A stretch of 36,892 nucleotides of DNA from Campylobacteraceae bacterium (GTDB lineage Bacteria; Campylobacterota; Campylobacteria; Campylobacterales; Sulfurovaceae). The first letter of the stretch is position 1. Each line of letters begins with the position of its first letter. The notes below the pieces were generated by a model. That model was not told the origin of the DNA and made no database searches. It saw only the letters and a list, made by a program, of their open reading frames with translations. The stretch is from NCBI GenBank assembly GCA_027056485.1, contig JALUKQ010000042.1:1-36892 (forward strand), read 5' to 3'. Shown piece by piece: positions 359 through 28,515 of the stretch. The position numbers were made by a program, and so were the translations under genes.

Positions 359-500
359 GTAGGTCGGGTTGCCCTCATCCCGACACCAAGTGGCATAAAT
401 AAATATTTTATCGTTCAATATATATTTGCAAATTTTGTTTTGTTGTATCAAGTTTTCAATTTATGCATGTTTATGTCGGGATGAGGGCAACCCGACCTAC
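359..500. repeat. REPIN-like element: two GTAG REP palindromes head to head
   Basis: A perfect 27-bp inverted repeat occupies 359-385 and 474-500, separated by an 88-bp AT-rich spacer. Each arm starts at its outer end with GTAG followed by a palindrome (GTCGGG, a 10-base loop, CCCGAC). GTAG before a hairpin is the hallmark of REP sequences mobilised by RAYT transposases, and two inverted REPs define a REPIN. Homology extends weakly inward (ATTTATGC on both sides). Related palindromes lie at 9510-9535, 16802-16921, 17933-17958 and 33653-33677. No RAYT gene is in the window. Confidence 0.8.
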
Positions 501-2824: not shown

Positions 2825-3667
2825 TTACCACTCACTCTCTTCTTCAAGATGTTTTTCCATATGTTCAATCTGCCAAGGGTAAAGGTGTGGTCTTAACTCT
2901 TCAATATCAAAATTCCAAAAAGTCGGACACTCCATTTCATCTTCCCAATTAGTTGGTTCAGCTGTGTCATAAGGAGGATTAATATATCTCTGCCACAGTT
3001 TCCTAGAATCTTTTATAACCCTAGCAACAGGTGGAGCAATACCTAACTCTTGATATGCCATAAGTTTATGATGTCCATCTAAGAGATAATTTTCAGATAC
3101 ATAGTCGTTAATTGGGTCATAATCATCTCTATATACAAGAACAAAAGGTCTTTTTCCTGCTTTTATCTCTTTTTTAAAATATCTTATTCTCTTACTATTT
3201 AACTTCTCTGTTGGTTGTGTCGCAATAAAACAATCTTCACTATAAGAATAAAAACCATACGTTGTTTTATCAATTAGTTCCATTCCTTCTACATTCCCAC
3301 CATACCTCTCTTTTGTTTTAACATTAAGCAGGTCTATAGAAGTGTCTGTATAAAAACTCCAATCTTGAGTTGCAGTATAATACTCCAAAACATAATCACC
3401 ATTTTCAAAGATTTTCCATAAAGGAGAGAGTAACTTTTCTAATCCTTCAATATCATGACTATAATCTTTATAGATAGCCTCTTGATAGAGAGCTAAAAAC
3501 TCATCACGATACTCCTGACTATAAGGAAGTAGCACTATATAGTTACCAATTGAACCTGCACAATCGCCCCAAATAAGACTAAGAGGTCTTTTGTAAACAA
3601 GATAATCTCCTAAATGACTAGCTTTAATAGTTAAAATTCCTTGACCGTTTTCTATTTTGAAATTCAT
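2825..3667 (-). CDS. Hypothetical protein with ParB/sulfiredoxin-like motif
   Basis: 280 aa from the ATG at 3667, chosen because AGAGG lies just before it. A longer frame to 3721 runs through the promoter. The first ~190 residues match nothing I know. Residues ~190-235 read LLDGHHKLMAYQELGIAPPV, the DGHHR/K-x-x-A signature of the ParB/sulfiredoxin-like fold seen in ParB N-domains and in Ser kinase or nuclease relatives. The tail is acidic. The fold suggests nucleotide binding or phosphotransfer, but catalytic function is unproven. Its promoter and leader are a near copy of those of the WD40 gene, so the two are probably co-regulated although transcribed separately. Confidence 0.7.
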   Translation of the reverse strand: MNFKIENGQGILTIKASHLGDYLVYKRPLSLIWGDCAGSIGNYIVLLPYSQEYRDEFLALYQEAIYKDYSHDIEGLEKLLSPLWKIFENGDYVLEYYTATQDWSFYTDTSIDLLNVKTKERYGGNVEGMELIDKTTYGFYSYSEDCFIATQPTEKLNSKRIRYFKKEIKAGKRPFVLVYRDDYDPINDYVSENYLLDGHHKLMAYQELGIAPPVARVIKDSRKLWQRYINPPYDTAEPTNWEDEMECPTFWNFDIEELRPHLYPWQIEHMEKHLEEESEW

Positions 3668-3691
3668 TTTTGCCTCTTTTCTATCTTCTCT

Positions 3692-3731
3692 AAGCACCAT
3701 TATAATACAATTAAACGACATATACAGTTGT
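3692..3731 (-). promoter_or_regulatory. Promoter and putative WYL operator of the ParB-like gene
   Basis: The minus strand has a TATAAT -10 box at 3704-3699. Upstream of it is an imperfect palindrome ACGAC-N7-GTTGT (3715-3731). The segment 3667-3731 closely matches 5626-5690 before the WD40 gene. The palindrome overlaps the expected -35 region, which suits a repressor site. Confidence 0.6.
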
Positions 3732-3760
3732 AATAGAAATTTTCTATCTTATCAAAAAAC

Positions 3761-5626
3761 CTAATCCTCCCTAGAAAATTCATTCACCTCAAAAATCACA
3801 CTATCCCCATTACAATAAACCTCTTTTTTCTCAAAAAGAAAATCTCCATCATCTCCTTTGTAGACCTTTTTGGCTTCAAAATCTCGAACAAACCAGTTAC
3901 CTCTTTGCCCTCCAATGTACTCTTGTTGTAAGGTATTGTCATTGATGTTCCAAACTTTAATTGTACCATCGGTTGAGCCTGATATAACCTCTCTGCCATC
4001 AGAGGTTGTAGCCAATGCTGTAATCATCTCTTTATGAGCTTCTATGGTTTGTATTACTTTTTCTTTTTTAATATCCCATACTAAAATTTTGCCATACCCT
4101 GTACCTACAACCACATACATCTCATTTGGACTCAATATAGCTTTAATAACACGCAATTCTTTCCCTGAAAGGCTTTCTAAAATAACTGACTCTCCACCAA
4201 TTTTTTCTAATTTAATAACATTTTCTAAAACTATTAGAGAGTAATTTTCACTCTTATCTTGCAAAAAGTTAAAACTTTTGATTATCTCATGTTTCGTATA
4301 AATTTTTTGTTCTTCTCTATCCCATACTCTTCCTTCATCAACTAGGTCTCTTATCCCAATATATCGATTGTCATTACTTATGGCTATATCTTCGACATAA
4401 TACTGACAATAGGAAAATGCATTGAGGTCTTTTTCGACTAAAAAACTTTCTACAAGTTGATGATTCTTTTTATCCCATACACGAATAACATTATCTAAAG
4501 AAAGAGAAACAAGATATTGTCCATCAGGACTTAATGCTAAGACTTCAACTCTCTCAGCATTTCCTCTTAAATCTTTAGACTCTTGTAGATGGCTTATATC
4601 CCATACATTTAGTTTGTCTTTTTGAGCAACAATACTTTTTCCATCCAAACTTATACCTATAAAATTTATCAGACCATAGCTATCTTCATTATTAATCGAA
4701 TAAATAGGCTTCTCATTTTTTATATCCCATATCTGTATAGATGAATAACCCTCACCACTATCACAACCTGAACCTGATATAATATAACATCCATCAGAAC
4801 TAATAACAACTGAGTGAATATCTCTTGCACCTACAAAACTTTTTATTAGAAGACCTGTCTCTAAATCCCATAAATTCAAACATATATATACATCATTAAA
4901 GCTACTTGAAGCACCTGAAACCATATATCTCCCATCTTGACTTATGGCTACAGAAGTTATATTTTCAGCATGATTAAAATCTACATATTTCAATTTCTTT
5001 TTCTCTCTGTTCCATATTTTGTAACTCTCTAACTCAGATTTAGAAAATATATAATCAGAATATTGCTCCTTTTTCAAAACGGTAGGAGCTAAACTACTTG
5101 GTAAAGCCCTAATAGATATATCACCTAAAGACATTGCCATATACTGTCTATAGTTAGCTTTTTTTTCAGATAAAATAATCTCACCTAGATTATAATGATA
5201 AAAAGAATAAAAAGAGTGATTCCATCTCCTATGTTCTTTATCTACTATAGTCATACTCTTTGGTATGAACACATAATGAGACTCCTCTCCCTCAATTAAA
5301 ATATCAGAACTATGTTCATCATATTTAGATGAATTAAAACTCTTCAAAAAAGCCTTATCTTTATGAGACAGTTTATCAATATTTTCAAAAACTTTAATAA
5401 CTCTTTCTTTCTTAACATTCCAAAGATGAATATCTCTATTATCTCTTGTCCAAAGATAATGACCATCTGAGGAAATTTTAAGTTCTTTTTCCCACTGTAG
5501 TATATGAAAATAACACGCTTCATACTTCTCTAAAGCCTCTCCACTTTTTACGCTTATGGGTTGTGGGATTATGACTGTAGATTTTATTTGAGATGTAGAA
5601 TTTTCTAATATTGTTTTATTTTTCAT
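3761..5626 (-). CDS. WD40 beta-propeller protein
   Basis: 621 aa from the ATG at 5626, which has AGAGGAAACA in front. The longer frame to 5680 would translate the promoter. Seven to nine WD40-type blades can be read, with endings such as IHLWNV, LNLWDL, IQIWDI, LNVWDI, IRVWDK, ILVWDI and IKVWNI, preceded by the typical SxDGRYxxSGS strand. There is no signal peptide, membrane helix or fused enzymatic domain, so it is probably a cytoplasmic scaffold. The divergent neighbour is a WYL-family regulator 27 bp from the shared palindrome region. WYL regulators often control stress or phage-defence loci; placing this locus among them is inference. Confidence 0.85.
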   Translation of the reverse strand: MKNKTILENSTSQIKSTVIIPQPISVKSGEALEKYEACYFHILQWEKELKISSDGHYLWTRDNRDIHLWNVKKERVIKVFENIDKLSHKDKAFLKSFNSSKYDEHSSDILIEGEESHYVFIPKSMTIVDKEHRRWNHSFYSFYHYNLGEIILSEKKANYRQYMAMSLGDISIRALPSSLAPTVLKKEQYSDYIFSKSELESYKIWNREKKKLKYVDFNHAENITSVAISQDGRYMVSGASSSFNDVYICLNLWDLETGLLIKSFVGARDIHSVVISSDGCYIISGSGCDSGEGYSSIQIWDIKNEKPIYSINNEDSYGLINFIGISLDGKSIVAQKDKLNVWDISHLQESKDLRGNAERVEVLALSPDGQYLVSLSLDNVIRVWDKKNHQLVESFLVEKDLNAFSYCQYYVEDIAISNDNRYIGIRDLVDEGRVWDREEQKIYTKHEIIKSFNFLQDKSENYSLIVLENVIKLEKIGGESVILESLSGKELRVIKAILSPNEMYVVVGTGYGKILVWDIKKEKVIQTIEAHKEMITALATTSDGREVISGSTDGTIKVWNINDNTLQQEYIGGQRGNWFVRDFEAKKVYKGDDGDFLFEKKEVYCNGDSVIFEVNEFSRED

Positions 5627-5657
5627 TGTTTCCTCTTTTCTATTTTTTCTAAGTGCC

Positions 5658-5690
5658 ATTGTAATATAATTAAACGACATATATAGTCGT
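5658..5690. promoter_or_regulatory. Divergent promoter with palindromic operator between WD40 and WYL genes
   Basis: The palindrome ACGAC-N7-GTCGT lies at 5674-5690. The WD40 side has a -10-like TACAAT (complement of 5658-5663) aligned with the TATAAT of the sister promoter at 3699-3704. The plus strand has TATAAT at 5665-5670, which would put the WYL transcript start inside the palindrome. This arrangement fits autorepression by the WYL protein. Confidence 0.6.
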
Positions 5691-5707
5691 AAAGGAATTT
5701 TTTACTC

Positions 5708-6628
5708 ATGAGCCAAAAATCAAGCCTATACCGAACCATAGAGATTCTAAAAGATTTAAATGAGGGTAAAAAACTCTGTATCAACACTCTTGCTAACTAC
5801 TATGATGTTGCTCCTCGTACCATTCAGCGTGACATTAAGCTCATTCGTGAAATCTTTGGTGACTTTCTCTCTAAAGAGGGTGACTGCTACCAAGGTCATA
5901 AAAAGGTACTACTTGATGAGTTGCTTCATGCGACTGATTTGATGACCTTAGCAAACATTACAAATCTGTTTGATATTACAAATAAGCAATCACTAATCTC
6001 TGTCAAGACCGATAAACTTATAAAAAACTCTATGTCTGTTTATGATTTTAAATCCAAACCATTTGAGATTATTAAAGATAAAGAGCTACTCAAAAAGCTA
6101 GAACATGCCATTAAGTTTAATAAAGAGTTATACATTGACTATAAAGCAAACAACAAAATAGTAGAGCGATATTTCTACCCATACCGAATTGTTTTTTTAA
6201 ATGAAAACTTCTATCTTGTAGGAGTAAATGTCTCTAAAAACTACTTTGAACCCTTGCGAATTGCCCTTATAAAAGATATTAACTACACTACAAAAGGGTT
6301 TCACAAAACAAAAGATATTGAGCAGTTCATAGACTCCATGCAAACCCCTTGGGCAAAATTTGGACTAAAAGAGAAAGTAGTAAAACTTCACATAAACTCC
6401 TGCATAGCCAAATATTTCAAACTCAAAAACTATCTTCCTACACAAAAAATACTCAAAGAGTTTGACAATGGAGATTTGGAATTAGAGTATAGAGTAACCG
6501 ATTTTAAAGAGGTTGAGGAGTTGATTATTAAGTGGTTACCCAATGTTAAAGTGTTGGAGCCTTTGGCTTTAAATGAGATGGTTCGTGAGGTGCTTTTTAG
6601 GAAGTTGGAGGGGACAGAGTTGACATAA
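5708..6628 (+). CDS. WYL-domain transcriptional regulator
   Basis: 306 aa. Residues ~5-60 form a winged helix-turn-helix of the DeoR/HTH_11 type (INTLANYYDVAPRTIQRDI is the recognition region). Residues ~130-200 form the WYL domain (LYIDYKANNKIVERYFYPYR, then FYLVGVN), followed by a WCX-like C-terminal extension. WYL domains sense nucleic-acid or nucleotide ligands and their proteins act as dimeric repressors or activators; BrxR/CapW-type members guard phage-defence loci. AAGGAA lies 11 bp before the ATG. Divergent from the WD40 gene with a palindrome in the shared promoter; a second copy of that site stands before the ParB-like gene. These two promoters are the likely targets. Confidence 0.9.
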   Translation: MSQKSSLYRTIEILKDLNEGKKLCINTLANYYDVAPRTIQRDIKLIREIFGDFLSKEGDCYQGHKKVLLDELLHATDLMTLANITNLFDITNKQSLISVKTDKLIKNSMSVYDFKSKPFEIIKDKELLKKLEHAIKFNKELYIDYKANNKIVERYFYPYRIVFLNENFYLVGVNVSKNYFEPLRIALIKDINYTTKGFHKTKDIEQFIDSMQTPWAKFGLKEKVVKLHINSCIAKYFKLKNYLPTQKILKEFDNGDLELEYRVTDFKEVEELIIKWLPNVKVLEPLALNEMVREVLFRKLEGTELT

Positions 6629-6691: not shown

Positions 6692-7975
6692 TTAATCAAA
6701 TGAAACCAGAGGCATCTCTTTCGCTACCTCTCTAAATTTACTAGCTCGGTTGAGTACAAACCTCAAAAGTTTTTCAATAAAAACAGACTCTTCTTTAGTC
6801 AACAAATCTTTCTCTATGACATCTTCTTCTAAAGTCTTAATAATCTTACTGCACTCACTAATCAAAACTTTTGATACTAATTTATGGTTCACTCCTACAT
6901 TATCAGAAAACTCTCGAAGCTGATAGGCAAACACTTCATTAGGGTTAAACTCATCACCATAAGCCATGGCTAGATTGTGGTCAAAGTCATACATCATTAC
7001 ACAGAGCATATCATAAAATGGTGTTGGTTTTATCCCTCGTTTATCTACAAAAAAAGAGAAGTTTTTACCATGAGCATCAGAGTTTCCAATAATTAAGTTA
7101 AACATAGCCCAATTAAGCAGTTCAAGTTGTGCAACAGCAGGAACAGAGCAAAACTTTGTACTCTCAAAAAGCTTTTTAAAACTTGTCCCCTCTCGAATAT
7201 GTGCAACATCACGCAAGTTACCAAAGTTCTGTTCATACTTATAGGTAGGTGGTAAGTTTAACATTTGACACCCATCTATAATATGCAATCGTTCTACAAA
7301 ATCATCTCTATAGACTCTATCAAATCGTTTAATTAAAAGTGTTGGGTACTCCCCAAACCTTTTAATCTCAACCTTTGCTACCTTGAGACCTATCTTTTTA
7401 GCAAGAGTCATACAAAAAAACTCATTGACCACGATGTGCAGATATTTTTTGGTCTGAAACTTCATAATATGCGTTGAGCTTAATCTTCCATCGCCTAAAC
7501 CAATCTTTTTATCTCTTACAATCACAGGTAATTTAGCTTGAACACCTGCTAAAGAGAGTCGAACTTTTTTATCCCATATCGCAATGCTTCTACTCTCTAG
7601 TTGTTCGATTCTATCACTTAACTCGGTAGGTGAAATCTCTCGAAAAATGGTTTCATTTTTCTCACTCTTGCTACCAAACATCAAAGCCCCTGCCGTATCA
7701 TAACCAATGGTGTTTACAATTGCAAAAGTATTGCTCTTAGCGATATGTGCAAAAGTAGCTATATCCTCTAACCCTTCCCCCTCAGGAATAAGATTTTCTA
7801 AAAATCGTTTAACCGTTGCAGAGCGATACTCTTTATTAAAGGGCAAATGAGGAGAGATAGCAAACCCACTCTCTATCCACTCTTTACAATACTCAAAAGA
7901 GTAGTTGTCATTCTCATCAAGAGAGACTTGACCTACAAGTTTATTTTGCATACTCACTTTTAAACTATTCATCAC
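6692..7975 (-). CDS. hipA: HipA-family serine/threonine kinase toxin
   Basis: 427 aa, the usual HipA length. An N-terminal HipA coupling domain (FLENLIPEGEGLEDIA) is followed by the kinase core: the P-loop-like SLAGVQAKLPV, IMKF with the ATP lysine, the catalytic loop NSDAHGKNFS (Asp and Asn present), and the metal-binding YDMLC in place of DFG. Known HipA proteins phosphorylate aminoacyl-tRNA synthetases or other translation targets and cause dormancy; the target here is unknown. The start overlaps the end of hipB by 11 bp, which suggests translational coupling. It converges with the WYL gene, 63 bp apart. All catalytic residues look intact. Confidence 0.93.
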   Translation of the reverse strand: MMNSLKVSMQNKLVGQVSLDENDNYSFEYCKEWIESGFAISPHLPFNKEYRSATVKRFLENLIPEGEGLEDIATFAHIAKSNTFAIVNTIGYDTAGALMFGSKSEKNETIFREISPTELSDRIEQLESRSIAIWDKKVRLSLAGVQAKLPVIVRDKKIGLGDGRLSSTHIMKFQTKKYLHIVVNEFFCMTLAKKIGLKVAKVEIKRFGEYPTLLIKRFDRVYRDDFVERLHIIDGCQMLNLPPTYKYEQNFGNLRDVAHIREGTSFKKLFESTKFCSVPAVAQLELLNWAMFNLIIGNSDAHGKNFSFFVDKRGIKPTPFYDMLCVMMYDFDHNLAMAYGDEFNPNEVFAYQLREFSDNVGVNHKLVSKVLISECSKIIKTLEEDVIEKDLLTKEESVFIEKLLRFVLNRASKFREVAKEMPLVSFD

Positions 7976-8231
7976 TATCCCAATCTTTCATATTCATCTC
8001 CATTCCTAAAGCTTCCATAATTTGTAGCAGAGTATTAAGTCTTACACCCTCAAAACCATTTTCTATTTTGTTTAGGGTATAGGCTGAAATATTGCAGAGC
8101 ATGGCACAATCAAGGGTGCTTAAGCCTTGTTGTGTTCTTCTTGCTTTTATGAACTTTCCTATGGTTTTTAGGGTTATGGGTTCGTTGAATGGCGGGGGTT
8201 GGGTTGGGGTTACTTTTTTTCCTTTTTGCAT
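7965..8231 (-). CDS. hipB: HipB-like XRE antitoxin
   Basis: 88 aa. A short proline-rich leader (TPTQPPPFNEP) precedes a helix-turn-helix of XRE type at ~22-80 (TIGKFIKARRTQQGLSTLDC ... LNKIENGFEGVRLNTLLQIM). It should bind its own promoter and neutralise HipA. The ribosome site is weak. The start is 16 bp after the stop of the metallo-beta-lactamase-fold gene and no promoter is visible in that gap, so the three genes are probably one operon and hipB may need read-through from upstream. Confidence 0.88.
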   Translation of the reverse strand: MQKGKKVTPTQPPPFNEPITLKTIGKFIKARRTQQGLSTLDCAMLCNISAYTLNKIENGFEGVRLNTLLQIMEALGMEMNMKDWDSDE

Positions 8232-8247
8232 AAGAATCTATCTTTAA

Positions 8248-9306
8248 CTAATAGTAACATTCAATTTTTTGAATAAATCGATTAGAAGCTTCTTCTGTTA
8301 CAACAATAGGTATACCATCTTGCAAAACAATTTGTTTTAATGTTGAACCATGAGGATGTCTAAATTTATTATTTATTCCTGCTGATATTACAGAGAGTAA
8401 ATTTCCTTTAAAATTTAATTTTTTATTATAATTATGTCTTGAACCATGGTGAGGTATTTGTATTGTACCAATATAGTCAAAATATTTTTGAAATGCATTT
8501 TCAAGTTCATTCCATTTTTCTTTACGTTTAGCATTATAATCTCCCAAATATAAACAACCTGACTCATTGTGGTATCTATAGTAATCATGTCGAATAAAAC
8601 ATTCCAGTTCACAATTATTCTTATAGTTTGTAGAATATCCAGAATATATTACTAATGAATTTGTATTTAAATCTTCTTTCAAGTCTTTATATATTCCAAT
8701 TATTTTATTTTTATGTTTTTCATATTTATCAGTAAAATTATCTATATTAATATCTATTTTATCTAATTCATGTTTTAGCATAATACTTCTTTGATTAAAT
8801 CTAAAATTAAATGGTACATAAATCCATTCACAATCATCATTTATTATAATAGGTTGACCACTTAATATAATATCTCTTGGTTCATTTTTTGGATTATCTC
8901 CGTCTATAGGACGTATAAAAGTAATTTGTATCTCTTTATCTCTAGAATATTCTTGAATAGTTTCTTCAGGATGTAAAGATAATTTTTTAATAAATACAGA
9001 AGCATCACTATTTGCTAAAAATACTTCAATTTTTTCCTCATCATATAAAAAAGGTAACAAAATTCTTTTTACATTATAACTCTGTAATAAATATTCTAAC
9101 CCATTTATATGGTCAGCATGAAAGTGAGAAATACATAATAAATCAACACTTTTTAAGTCACTATGCTTAATTTCATTAATAATTAATTTCTTATCACCAT
9201 AAGAACCACAATCATATACCATTGTAAATTTTGGTCTATAATCTTTATCATAAAACTCTTCTGTATAAAAAGCCCCTTGTCCAACTGAATTAAAAGTTCT
9301 TATCAT
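8248..9306 (-). CDS. Metallo-beta-lactamase-fold hydrolase, ComEC/Rec2-like type
   Basis: 352 aa. The start MIRTFNSVGQGAF is of the VGQG-type found in competence-related MBL proteins. The metal motif is SHFHADH at ~60-66; later metal ligands are plausible in LGDYNAKRK and IPHHGSRHNY, near the C-end. There is no signal peptide, so it acts in the cytoplasm. This class includes nucleases and phosphodiesterases; the substrate here is unknown. The base composition is clearly more AT-rich than its neighbours (many AAT, AAA and ATT codons), suggesting recent acquisition. AAGGAAAATAA precedes ATG. It is the first gene of the operon with hipB and hipA. A ~200-bp AT-rich stretch upstream should carry the promoter, but I cannot fix it. 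Confidence 0.82.
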   Translation of the reverse strand: MIRTFNSVGQGAFYTEEFYDKDYRPKFTMVYDCGSYGDKKLIINEIKHSDLKSVDLLCISHFHADHINGLEYLLQSYNVKRILLPFLYDEEKIEVFLANSDASVFIKKLSLHPEETIQEYSRDKEIQITFIRPIDGDNPKNEPRDIILSGQPIIINDDCEWIYVPFNFRFNQRSIMLKHELDKIDINIDNFTDKYEKHKNKIIGIYKDLKEDLNTNSLVIYSGYSTNYKNNCELECFIRHDYYRYHNESGCLYLGDYNAKRKEKWNELENAFQKYFDYIGTIQIPHHGSRHNYNKKLNFKGNLLSVISAGINNKFRHPHGSTLKQIVLQDGIPIVVTEEASNRFIQKIECYY

Positions 9307-9509
9307 TTATTTTCCTTCGTATAATATAAAACACAACTTTACTTTATCTTTAAAAAAGTATAGCATAATATATTATAAAATACAATTATAAATGTATTAA
9401 TACTGTAGTGTGAAAGTTTTATTTTAAAGTTAAACTATAGTTGTGTTTAAAATAAATAGTATAAAATTTTATATTGAACAATAAAACATTCTCTTCATCA
9501 TGCGTAAAT

Positions 9510-9535
9510 GTCGGAATACGGTGATTCCGACCTAC
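9510..9535 (-). repeat. GTAG REP palindrome
   Basis: On the minus strand, GTAG is followed by a perfect 8-bp stem GTCGGAAT / ATTCCGAC with a 6-base loop. It stands 3' of the broken deformylase gene and before the MBL promoter region. It resembles the REP arms at 359-500, with base changes kept complementary in the stem. Confidence 0.75.
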
Positions 9536-9598
9536 AGTGTTTCCAATATTATTTTATGAGAGGTTTGTTTTGACGGTAAATTCTATTTCCCATCTCCC

Positions 9599-10130
9599 CT
9601 ACTCTGAATAAATAATCTTCCGATACTCCCTCTCCATCACAATATCCAAAGTAGACTCAACCCTATCAATAAATACTTTTCCATTCAGATGGTCAAACTC
9701 ATGCTGAAAGATTCGAGCTAAAAAGCCCTCTAATACCTCTTCAACTACTTCTCCATTTTGTGTAAGGTAACGAACTTCTATCTTTGTTGGACGAGGGACT
9801 TTTCCTCGTACATTTGGCAAAGACAAACACCCCTCCCAATCTTTTTCTACTTCATCTCCATAACTTAAAATCTTAGGGTTTATAATGGCTTTTGGTTGCA
9901 TCTTTGGAGCATTTGGGTAACGCTTGTTTGGTTGTGAAGCCATAATAAAAATGCGTTTAGAGACTCCTATTTGTGGAGAGGCTATCCCCTATGCCTTGTG
10001 TTGCTCTACAGGTTAAAATAAGGTCATCAATAAGCTCTTGTGTCTTCTTGGATTTTACATCTTCAAGCACTGTAGATACTTCTCTAAGTACCTCTGTACC
10101 TAACTGCTTTACATTTTGTACTTTTTTCAT
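9599..10130 (-). pseudogene. def: Peptide deformylase gene broken by a one-base frameshift
   Basis: Peptide deformylase removes formyl groups from nascent proteins. The 5' part (from ATG 10130, MKKVQNVKQLG) reads well to TQGIG and then leaves frame. The 3' part carries the metal motifs EGCLSLP and QHEFDHLNG. Removing one C from the run CCCC at 9986-9989 restores GIGIASPQIGVSKRIFIM, that is motif 1 (GIGLAAPQ-like), and a full protein of ~176 aa. It is therefore either a real frameshift or a homopolymer sequencing error. An essential housekeeping def copy is expected elsewhere. ATG overlaps the stop of the phosphatase gene upstream (TAATG). Confidence 0.85.
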
Positions 10131-10846
10131 TATATTTTTCCACACTCAAAAACCTCTTGCGTCTCCACACAATAAGCACTTAACATTCCACTATCTTTTC
10201 GTCCACACCCTGTATCTAAATTTACAAAATTTTGACCTATGACCACACTTGGTACATTGGTATGACCGTAGATATTAAAAATGGGGCTATCAGCAGAGGG
10301 TCGTCTGCGATTGGTCATAATGTAGAACTCAAAGTGTTTGTAGTTTATCTTTTCCAAATCCCAAAAGTCACCAATACTTGCATGGCTAATAACAATAGGT
10401 AGAGCAGGATTATGAGGATTGTCCATTTTGATGTAGAGTGGCAGACGCTTCATCCACTCTATGTCCTCTTGAAGTTAGGCTATGCCCTCCATATTTTTCA
10501 CAAACGCATAAACATCCTCTTGTTTTTCTAGCAAACCATAAGAGAGTAACGTCTCAAGGCCTCCTGAAAAAACCCAAGTGTTGGTCATGCTTACCTCTTC
10601 ATCAGCTAAAAGTTTATCTATAAGTTTTTGTCCATCTTCTATCATAAATTGCTCATGATTTCCTCGAACTACGGTATGGTTATGCTTTCGTATATAAGCA
10701 ATAATCTCACGACTCTGTAAGCCTCTATCTATAAGGTCACCTACAAAGATGAGTTCTACATCTTTTGGGAGTTTTTCTACTAGAGCCAAAAGTGTTTGAT
10801 ACTCTCCGTGGATGTCTTCTATGATGTAGTGCTTTTTCTCTTTCAT
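10130..10846 (-). pseudogene. PPP-family metallophosphatase with an in-frame stop codon
   Basis: The frame starts at ATG 10846 (AGGAG site) and has EDIHG, GDLIDRG, GNHE, then stops at TAA 10475-10477. The same frame continues with LQEDIEWMKRLP, SHASIG, NIYGHT and LDTGCG to 10130. At the stop position both paralogues (11097-11843 and 13185-13892) have Gln, so a single CAA to TAA change explains it. The first motif has also lost its leading Gly (ED for GD). With the frameshifted def directly downstream, this operon end appears to be decaying. Stop-codon read-through is possible but unsupported. A longer reading from 10948 would translate the structured repeat and is unlikely. Confidence 0.85.
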
Positions 10847-10903
10847 TCTCTTCTCCTTATATATTATTAAACCAAATAAATTATCATAAAAAATAATCCA
10901 TAT

Positions 10904-11065
10904 TAACACCGTAAAATAGGCTTCTAAGCCTGCACAATCAAGACACAAATTACTACTATAATTTCCACATGAGAGATATTTTTTTTCTTCCTATTTTTAG
11001 TATCTCTTCATAAAAGTTTCTACTTCATATGTTATTTCCCACAGCCGATTAGGCAAAGTAGAAAC
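10904..11065 (-). repeat. Structured intergenic repeat, copy 2
   Basis: Same element and orientation as 677-851. It begins ~30 bp after the stop of the intact phosphatase at 11097 and ends before the broken phosphatase gene. The outer stem is a perfect 11 bp (AGTTTCTACTT / AAGTAGAAACT) enclosing TTGCCTAATCGGCTGTGG-type sequence or its equivalent. A GAGATA/TATCTC stem follows, then the hairpin AGGCTT-AG-AAGCCT before TTTTA. The last hairpin is longer than in copy 1 although the primary sequence differs. Confidence 0.72.
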
Positions 11066-11096: not shown

Positions 11097-11843
11097 CTAC
11101 CATACTTTCTCAGCTTCAAGAACCTCACCACTCTCAACAGAATAAGCACTCAACTTTCCATAACCTTTAATATGAGCAAAACAGCACCCTGTATCAACAA
11201 TAGCATACGATTCAGTGACTTTTACTTCATTCTTTTGTGGGGTATGCCCATAGATATTAAAAATATCAGCCTCTTCATTCACTTCTCTCTCTCGATTCCA
11301 CATTACACCATAATCAAACTCATCTTTTTGACTTTTATCGTATCTTAAATGCCAAAGATGAGAGATATTACTATGAGAGACCACTACATTTTTACTTGAA
11401 TGGTGTTTCGCATTAAGCTCAATATAGATAGGTAACTCACGCATCCACAAAGCATCTTCTCTTAACTGATTTATTCCCTCTCTATTGTCATGATTAAACT
11501 CATAATTTCCATTGTCATCAAGTGTAACTAAACCATACGAAAGATAGGTTGCCATGCGACTACTCTCTTTTATACAGCGTGGATTTAACGATGAGAGTTC
11601 TCTTTTATGTTCTAAAAACTCTATAAAAGGTTCAGCACATTTACTTACTGTATTTTCATGGTTACCTTTAACTACTTGGTAGCCTCTTTTACGAACCAGT
11701 GCAACTACTTCTTTGGTTTGCAATCCCCTATCTACTATGTCTCCTGCAAAAATAATCTCTGAATCTTTGGGGATTTTTTTAAGTAGTGCTAGTAGGGTTT
11801 TATACTCTCCGTGAACATCGCCTATAACATAATGCTTTTTCAT
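11097..11843 (-). CDS. PPP-family metallophosphatase, intact paralogue
   Basis: 248 aa. The diagnostic motifs are present in order: GDVHG (8-12), GDIVDRG (34-40), GNHE (60-63), then SHSNISH and NIYGHTP. These bind the two metals. The family includes phage-lambda-type Ser/Thr phosphatase, PrpE and ApaH, which hydrolyse phosphoproteins or dinucleoside tetraphosphates. The neighbours (HIT, MazG) favour a nucleotide substrate, but sequence alone cannot decide. It starts 2 bp after the HIT stop with a weak ribosome site, so it is probably coupled. It is the only one of three local paralogues with all motif residues and an unbroken frame. Confidence 0.88.
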   Translation of the reverse strand: MKKHYVIGDVHGEYKTLLALLKKIPKDSEIIFAGDIVDRGLQTKEVVALVRKRGYQVVKGNHENTVSKCAEPFIEFLEHKRELSSLNPRCIKESSRMATYLSYGLVTLDDNGNYEFNHDNREGINQLREDALWMRELPIYIELNAKHHSSKNVVVSHSNISHLWHLRYDKSQKDEFDYGVMWNREREVNEEADIFNIYGHTPQKNEVKVTESYAIVDTGCCFAHIKGYGKLSAYSVESGEVLEAEKVW

Positions 11844-13184: not shown

Positions 13185-13892
13185 CTAAACGCATCCCACA
13201 GAAACAATCTCTTTTGTCTCCACACAATACGCACTCAACTTTCTATCTTTCCCTCGTCCACAACCTGTATCTAGGCTCACAAAGTTCTTTTCAATTAAGA
13301 CTTCATCTTTTGGAACATGCCCATAAATATTAAAGATAGGAGCAGAAGATGAAGGATTATTTCGGTTATTCATAGCATGAAAAGCAAAATAGTCTGGATG
13401 GCTATCTTTAAAAAGCCAATATTTATCTACTGGTGCATGAGTGACGACTACAGGGAGTGAGTACCCTTTTAACTGTCCAAATTCAAAATAGACAGGTAGT
13501 TGTTCTATCCACTCCATATCTTCTTTCATTTGGTCTATACTCTCTTGATTTATGGTAATTTTATTAGAACCTCTTTTTAAAAATCCATAAGAGCGTAATG
13601 TACTAGAGAGATGAGTATATGCCCAGATAAGACTGCTATTATTTATCTTATTTTGAACTCCTTCTAAAAAATTAGAGCCAAATTTTAGAAGATACTCTTC
13701 ATGATTTCCTTTTATACAACAAAAAGCGTTGTTCCTAACAAAATCAATAACATCCTTACTTTGTGAGCCTCTATTAATTAAATCTCCTACAAAAATAAGC
13801 CGTGTATCTTTGGGAAGTTTCTCTACTAATGCCAAAAGTGTTTGGTACTCTCCATGAACATCACCTATGATGTAATGCTTTTGTTCTTTCAT
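13185..13892 (-). CDS. PPP-family metallophosphatase with Asp-to-Asn change
   Basis: 235 aa, starting after an excellent site (AAGGAGGTAGC). Motifs: GDVHG, GDLINRG, GNHE, THAPVD, NIYGHVP, LDTGCG. In the second motif the usual DRG is NRG (codon AAT). In lambda phosphatase and PP1 this Asp pairs with the GNHE histidine in catalysis, so activity may be weak or altered. It heads the operon with GNAT, MazG, HIT and the intact phosphatase. The 213 bp upstream (13893-14105) contains no gene; it is purine-rich, holds the neighbour's terminator and probably the promoter, which I cannot place exactly. Confidence 0.87.
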   Translation of the reverse strand: MKEQKHYIIGDVHGEYQTLLALVEKLPKDTRLIFVGDLINRGSQSKDVIDFVRNNAFCCIKGNHEEYLLKFGSNFLEGVQNKINNSSLIWAYTHLSSTLRSYGFLKRGSNKITINQESIDQMKEDMEWIEQLPVYFEFGQLKGYSLPVVVTHAPVDKYWLFKDSHPDYFAFHAMNNRNNPSSSAPIFNIYGHVPKDEVLIEKNFVSLDTGCGRGKDRKLSAYCVETKEIVSVGCV

Positions 13893-18017: not shown

Positions 18018-18362
18018 CTATAATAGACAAATATCACTTAAAAACTTATCCAATCTCTCTATGTCTTGTTGTGCCAAAGAGCCTAACCTATGTATAATAA
18101 ACTCTCTCTCAATAGTAGCAACAGAAGATTTAAAAATAGATGGTTTCAAAAGATTTGCCTCTTTCCAAAAAGTTATATTTTGCTCCATCTCTAACTTGCT
18201 ATCTACTTGACTAGAAATAGCCAAGATAAGATAAGTTCCTCTACTATGTTGATTGTAGTACTCATTCGAGATAATCACTGCTGGTCTAGCTTTGTATTTT
18301 AGACTACTTGCAAAAGGAAATTTAACAACAACTACAGTGTACTTATCTAAGGAATCTATCAT
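18018..18362 (-). CDS. MazF/PemK-family endoribonuclease toxin
   Basis: 114 aa from ATG 18362, chosen because GAGG lies about nine bases upstream; ATG 18371 has no spaced site. The PemK fold is visible: VVVVKFPFASSLKYKARPAVIIS, then LILAISSQ and the SVATIEREFIIHRLGSL strand. Such toxins cut mRNA at short motifs. The gene overlaps the antitoxin by ~20 bp, typical for mazEF-like pairs. Confidence 0.85.
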   Translation of the reverse strand: MIDSLDKYTVVVVKFPFASSLKYKARPAVIISNEYYNQHSRGTYLILAISSQVDSKLEMEQNITFWKEANLLKPSIFKSSVATIEREFIIHRLGSLAQQDIERLDKFLSDICLL

Positions 18363-18603
18363 AAACCTCATCCTCTTTATTGTTCCAAATCTTCTCTAGT
18401 GATACATTTGAAAGCTCTTGAAATCCATTTAACTCATCTTCTATTTTTTTATATTTACTGATTCTCTCTTTTTTTTGAAAAGCATTTAGTAAAAACTGCA
18501 ATGTCTCAATCGTTACCTCTTCTAAATCCTGTTTTTGCTGTTTTAGAAATTGTAATAACTGCTCTTCTATATCAGGATTATCAATTTTTAGTGTAATTGC
18601 CAT
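18343..18603 (-). CDS. Antitoxin of the MazF-like module
   Basis: 86 aa, N-terminus MAITLKIDNPDIEEQLLQF shared with the orphan antitoxin at 17533-17808, then a helical acidic C-terminus (ELSNVSLEKIWNNKEDEVYD) expected to bind the toxin. Combining a shared N-domain with different toxin partners suggests modular exchange. The start is preceded by AAAAGGAGTAAA, a strong ribosome site. Confidence 0.8.
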   Translation of the reverse strand: MAITLKIDNPDIEEQLLQFLKQQKQDLEEVTIETLQFLLNAFQKKERISKYKKIEDELNGFQELSNVSLEKIWNNKEDEVYDRFLR

Positions 18604-28173: not shown

Positions 28174-28515
28174 TTATCCAACAAGTGCAACAATATTCTT
28201 CTGAACACTCTCAATAACACTACTTGGTACTTTGCAGATAAAACTTATTTCACGTACAGAAAAATCTAAATTTTTAACTTGGTCAGAGAGAATAACCCCT
28301 TCAACAGGTAGATTATTAGGAAGCATCACTTCAAAAGGGTAATCTTTTATTTTCGAAGTAATAGGAAGAGCAATACATAAAGAGGTTTTTTCGTTATATA
28401 TTTTGGGTGAAAGAATTAGAGCAGGTCGTTTACCTCTTTGTTCGTGTCCTGCTTGTGGGGTGAAATTGAGCCAAACAATATCTCCTCTATCAGGAACATA
28501 GCTACCACTCTTCAT
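28174..28515 (-). CDS. mazF: MazF/PemK endoribonuclease toxin
   Basis: 113 aa. Classical MazF pattern: VPDRGDIVWLNFTPQAGHEQ, RGKRPALILSP, LCIALPITSK, and the late VILSDQVKNLDF strand. All conserved residues for RNA cleavage appear present. It overlaps its antitoxin gene by 14 bp. The family cuts mRNA at short sites and slows growth under stress. Confidence 0.93.
   Translation of the reverse strand: MKSGSYVPDRGDIVWLNFTPQAGHEQRGKRPALILSPKIYNEKTSLCIALPITSKIKDYPFEVMLPNNLPVEGVILSDQVKNLDFSVREISFICKVPSSVIESVQKNIVALVG

What the first reader, a model, noticed from the sequence alone, without database searches (positions are those of the whole stretch)
3667..5708. Duplicated promoter, leader and palindrome link a ParB-like gene, a WD40 gene and a WYL regulator
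Bases 3667-3731 and 5626-5690 are near copies, including the -10 box, the leader and a palindrome (ACGAC-N7-GTCGT or GTTGT). One copy lies in the WYL/WD40 divergent promoter, so the WYL protein probably represses both genes. WYL regulators commonly guard defence loci (known for BrxR/CapW). A WD40 scaffold plus a ParB/sulfiredoxin-like protein, with TPR, small protein and NUDIX downstream, matches no system I know.
Basis: partly seen in the sequence, partly recalled or inferred. Interest (0 to 1): 0.72.

Follow-up and report, generated by a model that had tools for sequence, protein, structure and literature searches.

The report
RNA-repair-type regulator with swappable gene cassettes
A bacterial gene switch whose close relatives sit beside machinery that mends cut RNA here has two copies of its likely control sequence, and in related species different genes occupy the places behind those copies, so the spot looks like a changeable set of stress or defence genes under one regulator.

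Summary
In detail: 3663-3743 and 5622-5702 are 84% identical over 81 nt, each with a -10-like box, leader, ribosome site and GAC-N7-GTC-type palindrome. Pattern scans found no further promoter-placed site in the genome held (87% complete).

The WYL protein belongs to a Campylobacterales clade in which 22 of 32 other fetched loci carry RtcB RNA ligase, PrfH or slipin genes. GAC-N7-GTC lies within 150 nt upstream of 15 of 36 such WYL genes, window included (0.35 expected). So the WYL-palindrome link has evolutionary support; binding is untested.

WD40 and ParB-like genes are variable cargo. In the same genus WYL adjoins promoter copies before WD40 plus an unrelated gene X (L151), X alone (L150), or a 5'-truncated ParB-like gene (L051). 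The WD40+ParB pair was not seen elsewhere in what I searched. One remote ParB-like relative lies among PNKP-type ligase, Hen1 and T4-type RNA ligase genes.

Best reading: an Rtc-type WYL regulator, most likely an autorepressor relieved by nucleic-acid damage, paralogised and now controlling exchangeable cassettes behind copied operator-promoter-leaders. Cargo biochemistry is unknown. New variant of a known kind (WYL-guarded conflict loci).

The parts
5708..6628 (+). WYL-domain transcription factor (HTH-WYL-WCX), 306 aa
   Evidence: Pfam HTH_DeoR, WYL and WCX above their cut-offs; 30 of 32 Foldseek PDB matches with E<=0.001 are PafBC, DriD, BrxR or CapW chains
5674..5690 (.). Operator 1 (inferred): perfect palindrome ACGAC-N7-GTCGT between WYL and WD40
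   Evidence: equivalent site in relatives
3715..3731 (.). Operator 2 (inferred): palindrome ACGAC-N7-GTTGT before the ParB-like gene (one arm mismatch)
   Evidence: L151 also has a second site at this place
5622..5702 (-). Promoter-leader copy 1 (operator, -10, leader, ribosome site of WD40)
   Evidence: repeat D2
3663..3743 (-). Promoter-leader copy 2 (operator, -10, leader, ribosome site of ParB-like gene), 84% identical to copy 1
   Evidence: repeat D2
5665..5670 (+). -10 box TATAAT assigned to the WYL gene; operator 1 starts 4 nt downstream, so it would cover the start site
   Evidence: read from sequence; inferred; the scan did not list it
5658..5663 (-). -10 box TACAAT assigned to the WD40 promoter; operator 1 occupies its -35 region
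   Evidence: read from sequence; inferred; not listed
3699..3704 (-). -10 box TATAAT assigned to the ParB-like promoter; operator 2 occupies its -35 region
   Evidence: read from sequence; inferred; not listed
3761..5626 (-). WD40 beta-propeller protein, 621 aa (cassette 1)
   Evidence: 64% relative beside WYL in L151
2825..3667 (-). ParB/sulfiredoxin-like protein with LDGHHK motif, 280 aa (cassette 2)
   Evidence: ParBc_2 only E 0.082, below cut-off; relatives L051, L052, L148
1982..2665 (-). TPR protein, downstream, membership uncertain
   Evidence: frameshifted in L051
1721..1969 (-). DUF3977 small protein, downstream, membership uncertain
   Evidence: 88-89% copies downstream in L051/L149 and L151
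857..1699 (-). DUF4743-NUDIX protein, downstream, probably not part of the core
   Evidence: not found in L051 or L151, remnant in L150

Best explanation
The locus is a regulator-anchored, exchangeable cassette site. The WYL protein (a homodimer by analogy with BrxR/CapW) binds GAC-N7-GTC palindromes. Site 1 covers the start region of its own promoter and the -35 region of the WD40 promoter; site 2 covers the -35 region of the ParB-like promoter. It therefore most likely represses itself and both cassettes until its WYL domain binds a nucleic-acid damage product, as ssDNA binds DriD/PafBC and cyclic-phosphate tRNA halves bind the analogous RtcR. The regulator arose among WYL proteins that control RtcB/PrfH/slipin RNA repair. 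After paralogy its operator-promoter-leader was copied so that each captured gene got its own copy. Which genes sit there differs by species (WD40+ParB-like; WD40+X; X; remnant ParB-like). Shown by sequence: the duplication, clade membership, site conservation, cargo variation. Inferred: binding, repression, ligand, control of rtcB by the kin, an RNA-damage role of the cargo.
For: Duplication far above chance. WYL tree: window in a clade of 4 (100/99), in a set of 6 with L152 and L153 (99/99), among 36 close rows; an earlier tree has a 10-row clade (100/98) of window, L051, 7 RtcB/PrfH-linked WYLs and one orphan. RtcB or PrfH in 20 of 32 fetched other loci, 22 of 32 counting slipin; WD40, ParB or DUF3977 in 0 of 32. 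GAC-N7-GTC within 150 nt upstream in 15 of 36 close WYLs (window included) against 0.35 (max 3 in 200 shuffles); 3 of 21 distant WYLs against 0.17, max 2. Several Rtc loci carry more than one site: in L043 between WYL and rtcB2, between prfH and rtcB1, and upstream of slipin; also L040, L160, L167. Q-type helices (TIQRD/TTQRD/SIQRD): 5 of 6 loci have a site, and all 5 nearest sites have at least one CGAC half-site. R-type helices (TIRRD/TVRRD): 18 of 27 loci have an AT-rich site, and 0 of 18 nearest sites has a CGAC half-site. Three same-genus genomes (G823, G827, G832) hold both paralogues. L151: WYL-site-WD40-site-X; L150: WYL-site-X; L051: WYL-site-truncated ParB. The second L151 copy begins, right after the WD40 stop, with 14 nt that are the reverse complement of the WYL start, so it was probably copied from the WYL-proximal promoter. 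ParB-like relative among PNKP_ligase, Hen1_N and RNA_lig_T4_1 genes.
Against: No binding, expression or ligand data. DriD and PafBC, the best structural matches, are activators. The Q-type helices form one clade, so the helix-site association is one event; L150 and the second L151 site have only one CGAC half. The nesting of the cassette clade inside Rtc-type WYLs rests on a fork of 91/99 that the tree draws open, with long-branch outgroups. Ten of 32 other loci show no RtcB/PrfH/slipin; in eight of these the WYL gene ends within about 1.25 kb of a contig end, but not in L152 and L169. Five of the 20 RtcB/PrfH-linked loci (L042, L156, L159, L165, L170) have no AT-rich site in the stretch scanned. 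The PrfH proteins fall below NCBIfam's cut-off (145.4 versus 166.65 bits; 0 of 298 genomes over it). The window genome as held has no RtcB or PrfH. The ParB-like protein matches Pfam only below cut-off, two of its relatives (L051, L052) do not match ParBc_2 at all, and its RNA-repair context rests on one remote relative; L052 shows no such context. L151's WYL gene runs off the contig.
Confidence: 0.6

Rival explanations
1. The WYL protein is a ligand-dependent activator of the cassettes (DriD/PafBC mode), not a repressor.
For: Best fold matches are PafBC and DriD, both titled activators, and four of five PDB profile hits are DriD entries by the titles; I see no good -35 box for the cassette promoters, and the site lies in the -35 region, where an activator could help polymerase.
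Against: Site 1 also covers the WYL gene's own start region, typical of autorepression; BrxR and CapW sites overlap or adjoin their promoters (PMC9122601, PMC9122588, PMC9122589, passages read).
Confidence: 0.22
2. A dedicated anti-phage system: WD40 and ParB-like proteins are effectors switched on by phage infection, unrelated to RNA repair.
For: More distant WYL kin adjoin DarT/macro genes (Pfam) and genes that look like CRISPR-Cas genes (L085, L086; by appearance, not scanned); a HipA/HTH pair lies next door; PADLOC WYL models match, best E 4e-19.
Against: No PADLOC hit for the ParB-like protein and only a short match to a HEAT/ARM model (E 8e-8) for WD40; the nearest WYL kin sit with RtcB/PrfH/slipin. 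Not exclusive of the main reading, since RNA repair can counter phage or toxin RNases.
Confidence: 0.25
3. The repeat is a tandem-duplication relic without regulatory meaning; palindrome 2 is a weak terminator or decaying copy and WYL controls only itself.
For: Operator 2 has a mismatch; a terminator-like stem was scored at 5690-5674 on the minus strand, one of 2 found against 0.9 in shuffles.
Against: L151 keeps two copies too, before WD40 and before a different gene; -10-like box and ribosome site are intact in both window copies; the stem has only 5 pairs and lies upstream of the -10.
Confidence: 0.1

Closest known systems
BrxR / CapW WYL regulators of BREX and CBASS
   Same: HTH-WYL-WCX protein, palindromic site in its own promoter region, and for BrxR a putative second site before another unit of the locus (R-BOX2 in pEFER, passage of PMC9122601).
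   Different: No BREX or CBASS cargo; site is GAC-N7-GTC rather than 10-11 bp arms with a 5 bp spacer (BrxR); clade kin adjoin rtcB/prfH/slipin; cargo sits behind copied promoter-leaders and varies between species.
RtcR-controlled rtcBA RNA repair (Salmonella)
   Same: RNA repair genes under a sensor with a nucleic-acid-binding domain (PMC7790460, abstract and passages).
   Different: RtcR is an activator with a CARF domain; here a WYL protein, and the window genome as held has no RtcB.
TrcR of Anabaena
   Same: Autoregulated factor that represses rtcB and, by fold change in its deletion, a slipin gene; relieved by translational stress (PMC10272220, abstract and passages).
   Different: Ribbon-helix-helix family, not WYL.
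PrfH-RtcB ribosome rescue and repair module
   Same: The clade's other WYLs mostly adjoin it; TPR genes are accessories of it in some cases (PMC6514570, passages).
   Different: Absent from the window genome as held; WD40 and ParB-like genes stand in its place.
Pnkp-Rnl-Hen1 RNA repair complex
   Same: A remote ParB-like relative lies among PNKP-ligase, Hen1 and RNA ligase genes.
   Different: None of these families was hit by the nine proteins scanned at the window locus; the shared region is about 85 residues. The complex's paper (PMC4411300) was seen in a search listing only.

Membership tests
WYL transcription factors | N-terminal winged HTH, WYL domain, C-terminal WCX domain | tested here: met
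   HTH_DeoR 23.7 (cut-off 21), WYL 30.8 (21.8), WCX 26.8 (23.9) bits; fold matches PafBC, DriD, BrxR, CapW (model pLDDT 76, pTM 0.44, TM-scores about 0.3)
WYL transcription factors | Palindromic site in the own promoter | tested here: met
   5674-5690; 15 of 36 close WYL genes, window included, have GAC-N7-GTC within 150 nt upstream
WYL transcription factors | Demonstrated DNA binding and ligand response | not testable with these tools
   needs purified protein
BrxR/CapW-guarded BREX or CBASS locus | BREX or CBASS genes next to the WYL gene | tested here: not met
   Pfam and PADLOC scans of 9 neighbouring proteins show none
RtcB-PrfH RNA repair module | RtcB and PrfH present | tested here: not met
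   Window genome as held: no RtcB (where 4 of 6 genomes ring), no PrfH beyond an ordinary release-factor match; genome 87% complete
Rtc-type WYL regulator clade | WYL falls in the clade whose members adjoin rtcB/prfH/slipin | tested here: met
   trees; linkage in 22 of 32
ParB/sulfiredoxin superfamily | Recognised ParB-type domain | tested here: inconclusive
   ParBc_2 E 0.082 (window) and 0.13 (L148), both below cut-off; no ParBc_2 match for L051 or L052; structure model failed (pLDDT 34)
Known defence systems (PADLOC-DB 2.0.0) | Full set of proteins of a catalogued system | tested here: not met
   Hits of the 9 proteins are to WYL models and to single WD40-, HipA-, HTH-, MBL- and (E 0.04) Cas1-type models
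Integron-like cassette arrays | Integrase and attC recombination sites | not tested
   No integrase search was made; the shared unit here is a promoter-leader, not a 3' site

The most novel reading that the evidence does not exclude
A WYL damage sensor carries a portable operator-promoter-leader that is copied in front of each captured gene, so homologous exchange between copies adds, removes or swaps cassettes that are under damage control from the start; and the ParB/sulfiredoxin-like LDGHHK protein is a new RNA-end-processing or RNA-repair enzyme delivered by this route.
Probability: 0.22. Interest if true: 0.82.

Novelty: new variant of a known kind. Interest (0 to 1): 0.6.

Why it matters
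It points to a WYL regulator class for RtcB/PrfH RNA repair in Campylobacterales, with a concrete candidate operator (GAC-N7-GTC) and a candidate specificity residue (R versus Q in T-I-R/Q-R-D). It also suggests how such a regulator can be paralogised to run a changing set of unknown genes. That gives a sequence handle (WYL type plus operator) for finding further RNA-damage or defence genes, and a testable model of how genes join a stress regulon by promoter copying. My searches of the held library showed no paper tying a WYL protein to rtcB/prfH specifically, judged from listings and the passages opened; a general prediction that some WYL or CARF factors regulate RNA repair is in print (PMC9503650, passage).

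Tried and rejected
Third genomic palindrome (C122) as a regulon member: lies inside a PurA-like ORF, rejected. Six other loose matches: all inside ORFs, rejected. ParB-like homologues in plasmids, phages and viral contigs: none; WYL in viral contigs: none. ParB-like homologues in 298 genomes of the order: only the window's own. The Bacteroidota profile search was swamped by the MORN tail of one alignment row, so its tally of 107 of 395 genomes is not a count of ParB-like genes; among the matches listed (the list was cut) only the row itself and G320 hit the central ParB-like part. AlphaFold model of the ParB-like protein failed (pLDDT 34) and was not searched. Leader as coding sequence: disfavoured because it is out of frame before X in L151. 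PrfH family search: 291 of 298 genomes ring because ordinary release factors match; only short-frame hits (197-200 aa, six genomes, in a cut list) were taken as PrfH-like, and all six are among the eight other genomes with a close WYL. Two of 31 WYL matches (G731, G781, partial) were not fetched. L149 is the same contig as L051, so it is not a further species; its site is missed in the count because its ORF was called too long (one search shows the site at -109). The helix pattern missed four loci; one search read two of them (L041, L166), both R-type; L169 and L170 stayed unread. L161 has a site with a less AT-rich spacer, left out of the 18.


Full report
Observation. The two stretches are near copies: 3663-3743 and 5622-5702, 84% over 81 nt, score 42 against a maximum of 13 in 100 shuffles. 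Each holds, on the minus strand, a palindrome, a -10-like box, a leader and AAGAGG-N5-ATG. The palindromes are 5674-5690 (perfect) and 3715-3731 (one arm mismatch). In the genome held (2.48 Mb, 87% complete) the two patterns tried gave no third promoter-placed site. The consensus promoter scan gave no support for my -10 assignments and lists another candidate whose second hexamer lies inside palindrome 1.

Proteins. 5708-6628 is an HTH-WYL-WCX regulator. A profile of 16 such proteins hits five PDB chains, four of them DriD entries by the titles. Its model is moderate (pLDDT 76, pTM 0.44); 30 of the 32 Foldseek matches with E<=0.001 are PafBC, DriD, BrxR or CapW chains and the other two are a protein titled CRISPR Cas-related. 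3761-5626 is a WD40 protein. 2825-3667 has an LDGHHK motif and only a sub-threshold ParBc_2 match. Downstream are TPR, DUF3977 and DUF4743-NUDIX genes.

The regulator's kin. In 298 genomes of the order, 126 have a WYL match at E<=1e-10, but 8 besides the window's own stand out at 53-57% identity. RtcB and/or PrfH genes lie beside the WYL gene in seven of these eight loci; the exception is L039. NCBIfam names the ~350-aa protein an RtcB family protein above cut-off (408.5 versus 407 bits) and the ~198-aa protein PrfH below cut-off (145.4 versus 166.65). Short-frame PrfH-like hits were seen in six genomes, all among those eight. A scan of the family (175 genomes) gave 27 genomes with close WYLs, 31 matches. 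Of 32 other loci fetched from both scans, 20 carry RtcB or PrfH, 22 with slipin counted, and none a WD40, ParB or DUF3977 match. The slipin is a Band_7 protein by Pfam. The window genome has no RtcB (0 matches; 4 of 6 genomes ring in the same call) and no PrfH beyond a release-factor match.

The site. GAC-N7-GTC lies within 150 nt upstream (or in the first 45 nt) of 15 of 36 close WYL genes, window included; 0.35 expected, maximum 3 in 200 shuffles. Typical forms are TGACATATTTTGTCC in Rtc loci and CGACATATACAGTCG in cassette loci. Several Rtc loci have more than one site: in L043 between WYL and rtcB2, between prfH and rtcB1, and upstream of slipin. Against this, five of the 20 RtcB/PrfH-linked loci (L042, L156, L159, L165, L170) show no AT-rich site in the stretch scanned. 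Among 21 distant WYLs, 3 have it (0.17 expected, max 2). DarT/macro genes in L089 have one just upstream, and L086, with CRISPR-like genes by appearance, has two.

Specificity. The recognition helix reads TIQRD, TTQRD or SIQRD in six WYLs (window, L149/L051, L150, L151, L152, L153). Five have a site, and each nearest site has at least one CGAC half-site (four have two; L150 one). In 27 WYLs it reads TIRRD or TVRRD; 18 have an AT-rich site and none of the 18 nearest sites has a CGAC half-site (halves are T or G). L045 (TIYRD) has two TGAC halves; L169 was unreadable and has G and T halves. One site with a C half in an R-type locus (L043, third nearest) lies inside rtcB1. All Q-type proteins form one clade, so this is one evolutionary event.

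Cassette variation. Within the genus: window, WYL-site-WD40, site-ParB-like; L151 (G827), WYL (cut by the contig end)-site-WD40 (64%), site-gene X (273 aa, no Pfam family above cut-off); L150 (G823), WYL-site-X; L051 (= G832:C41), WYL-site joined to a ParB-like gene lacking its first 66 or so codons, with a frameshifted TPR gene and DUF3977. The second promoter copy in L151 starts, right after the WD40 stop, with 14 nt that are the reverse complement of the WYL start, so it probably derives from the WYL-proximal promoter; the window copy is alignable there but diverged. G823, G827 and G832 also carry an Rtc-type paralogue with RtcB and PrfH. This fits promoter copying with gain, loss or swap of the gene behind it. 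The order of events is inferred from four loci in draft contigs.

Function of the cargo. The ParB-like family looks rare: a pattern-based scan of genome contigs found L051 and L052. L052 is a Bacteroidetes protein with a MORN tail and no WYL or WD40 seen nearby. A remote relative in L148 (hhalign probability 97, E 7e-11 over 85 columns; BLASTP E 3e-8 over 70 residues) lies among PNKP_ligase, Hen1_N and RNA_lig_T4_1 proteins, all above cut-off. In L150 an RlaP (RNA repair polymerase-beta family) gene lies two genes away from WYL, on the other strand. TPR genes are accessories of PrfH-RtcB in some cases (PMC6514570, passages). These are context links; no activity is shown.

Mechanism. By analogy with BrxR and CapW (passages of PMC9122601, PMC9122588, PMC9122589) I expect autorepression and repression of both cassettes, released by a nucleic-acid ligand. 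DriD and PafBC are the closest folds and are activators (their ssDNA response also from abstracts), so activation remains possible. RtcR senses cyclic-phosphate tRNA halves (PMC7790460), and TrcR represses rtcB and a slipin gene in Anabaena (PMC10272220), so joint control of these genes by a stress-relieved regulator has precedent.

Novelty. Searches of the held library, seen as listings plus the passages opened, showed no paper on a WYL regulator of rtcB/prfH or on such cassettes; PMC9503650 predicts in general that WYL or CARF factors may regulate RNA repair. The 2016 RNA-repair survey and the 2022 PrfH-RtcB paper are not held, so either may say more. I rate it a new variant of a known kind.

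Noticed in passing
window 6692-8231 (-): HipA-like kinase and HTH partner (HipBA-type toxin-antitoxin pair) directly downstream of the WYL gene.
   Followed up: no
window 8248-9306 (-): Metallo-beta-lactamase-fold protein with PADLOC PDC-M48B and RT-associated MBL hits.
   Followed up: no
window 10130-10948, 11097-11843, 13185-13892 (-): Three similar GDVHGEY phosphatase-like genes in a short stretch, the first split over two ORFs; identity recalled from motif, not scanned.
   Followed up: no
window 18018-18371 and 28174-28515 (-): Two MazF-like toxin genes by appearance, not scanned.
   Followed up: no
window 359-400 / 459-500: 42-nt inverted repeat, 88% complementary, 58 nt between the arms.
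   Followed up: no
L089:4158 and 4167-5528: DarT and macro-domain genes next to a distant WYL, with AGACACTATATGTCT just upstream of DarT.
   Followed up: partly
L083:6477 and 8337-10448: Another distant WYL with AGACATATTTTGTCT; a WD40-repeat protein (by appearance) lies a few genes away.
   Followed up: no
L152:3029-5473: STAND-type NTPase gene (by appearance) convergent with the WYL sister of the cassette clade in G828.
   Followed up: no
L038:6348-6671, L040:8202-8537: Small LMWP-phosphatase-like protein recurs in 7 of 32 Rtc-type and sister loci.
   Followed up: partly
L150:2980-4014: RlaP-family RNA repair gene beside the X-type cassette locus.
   Followed up: partly
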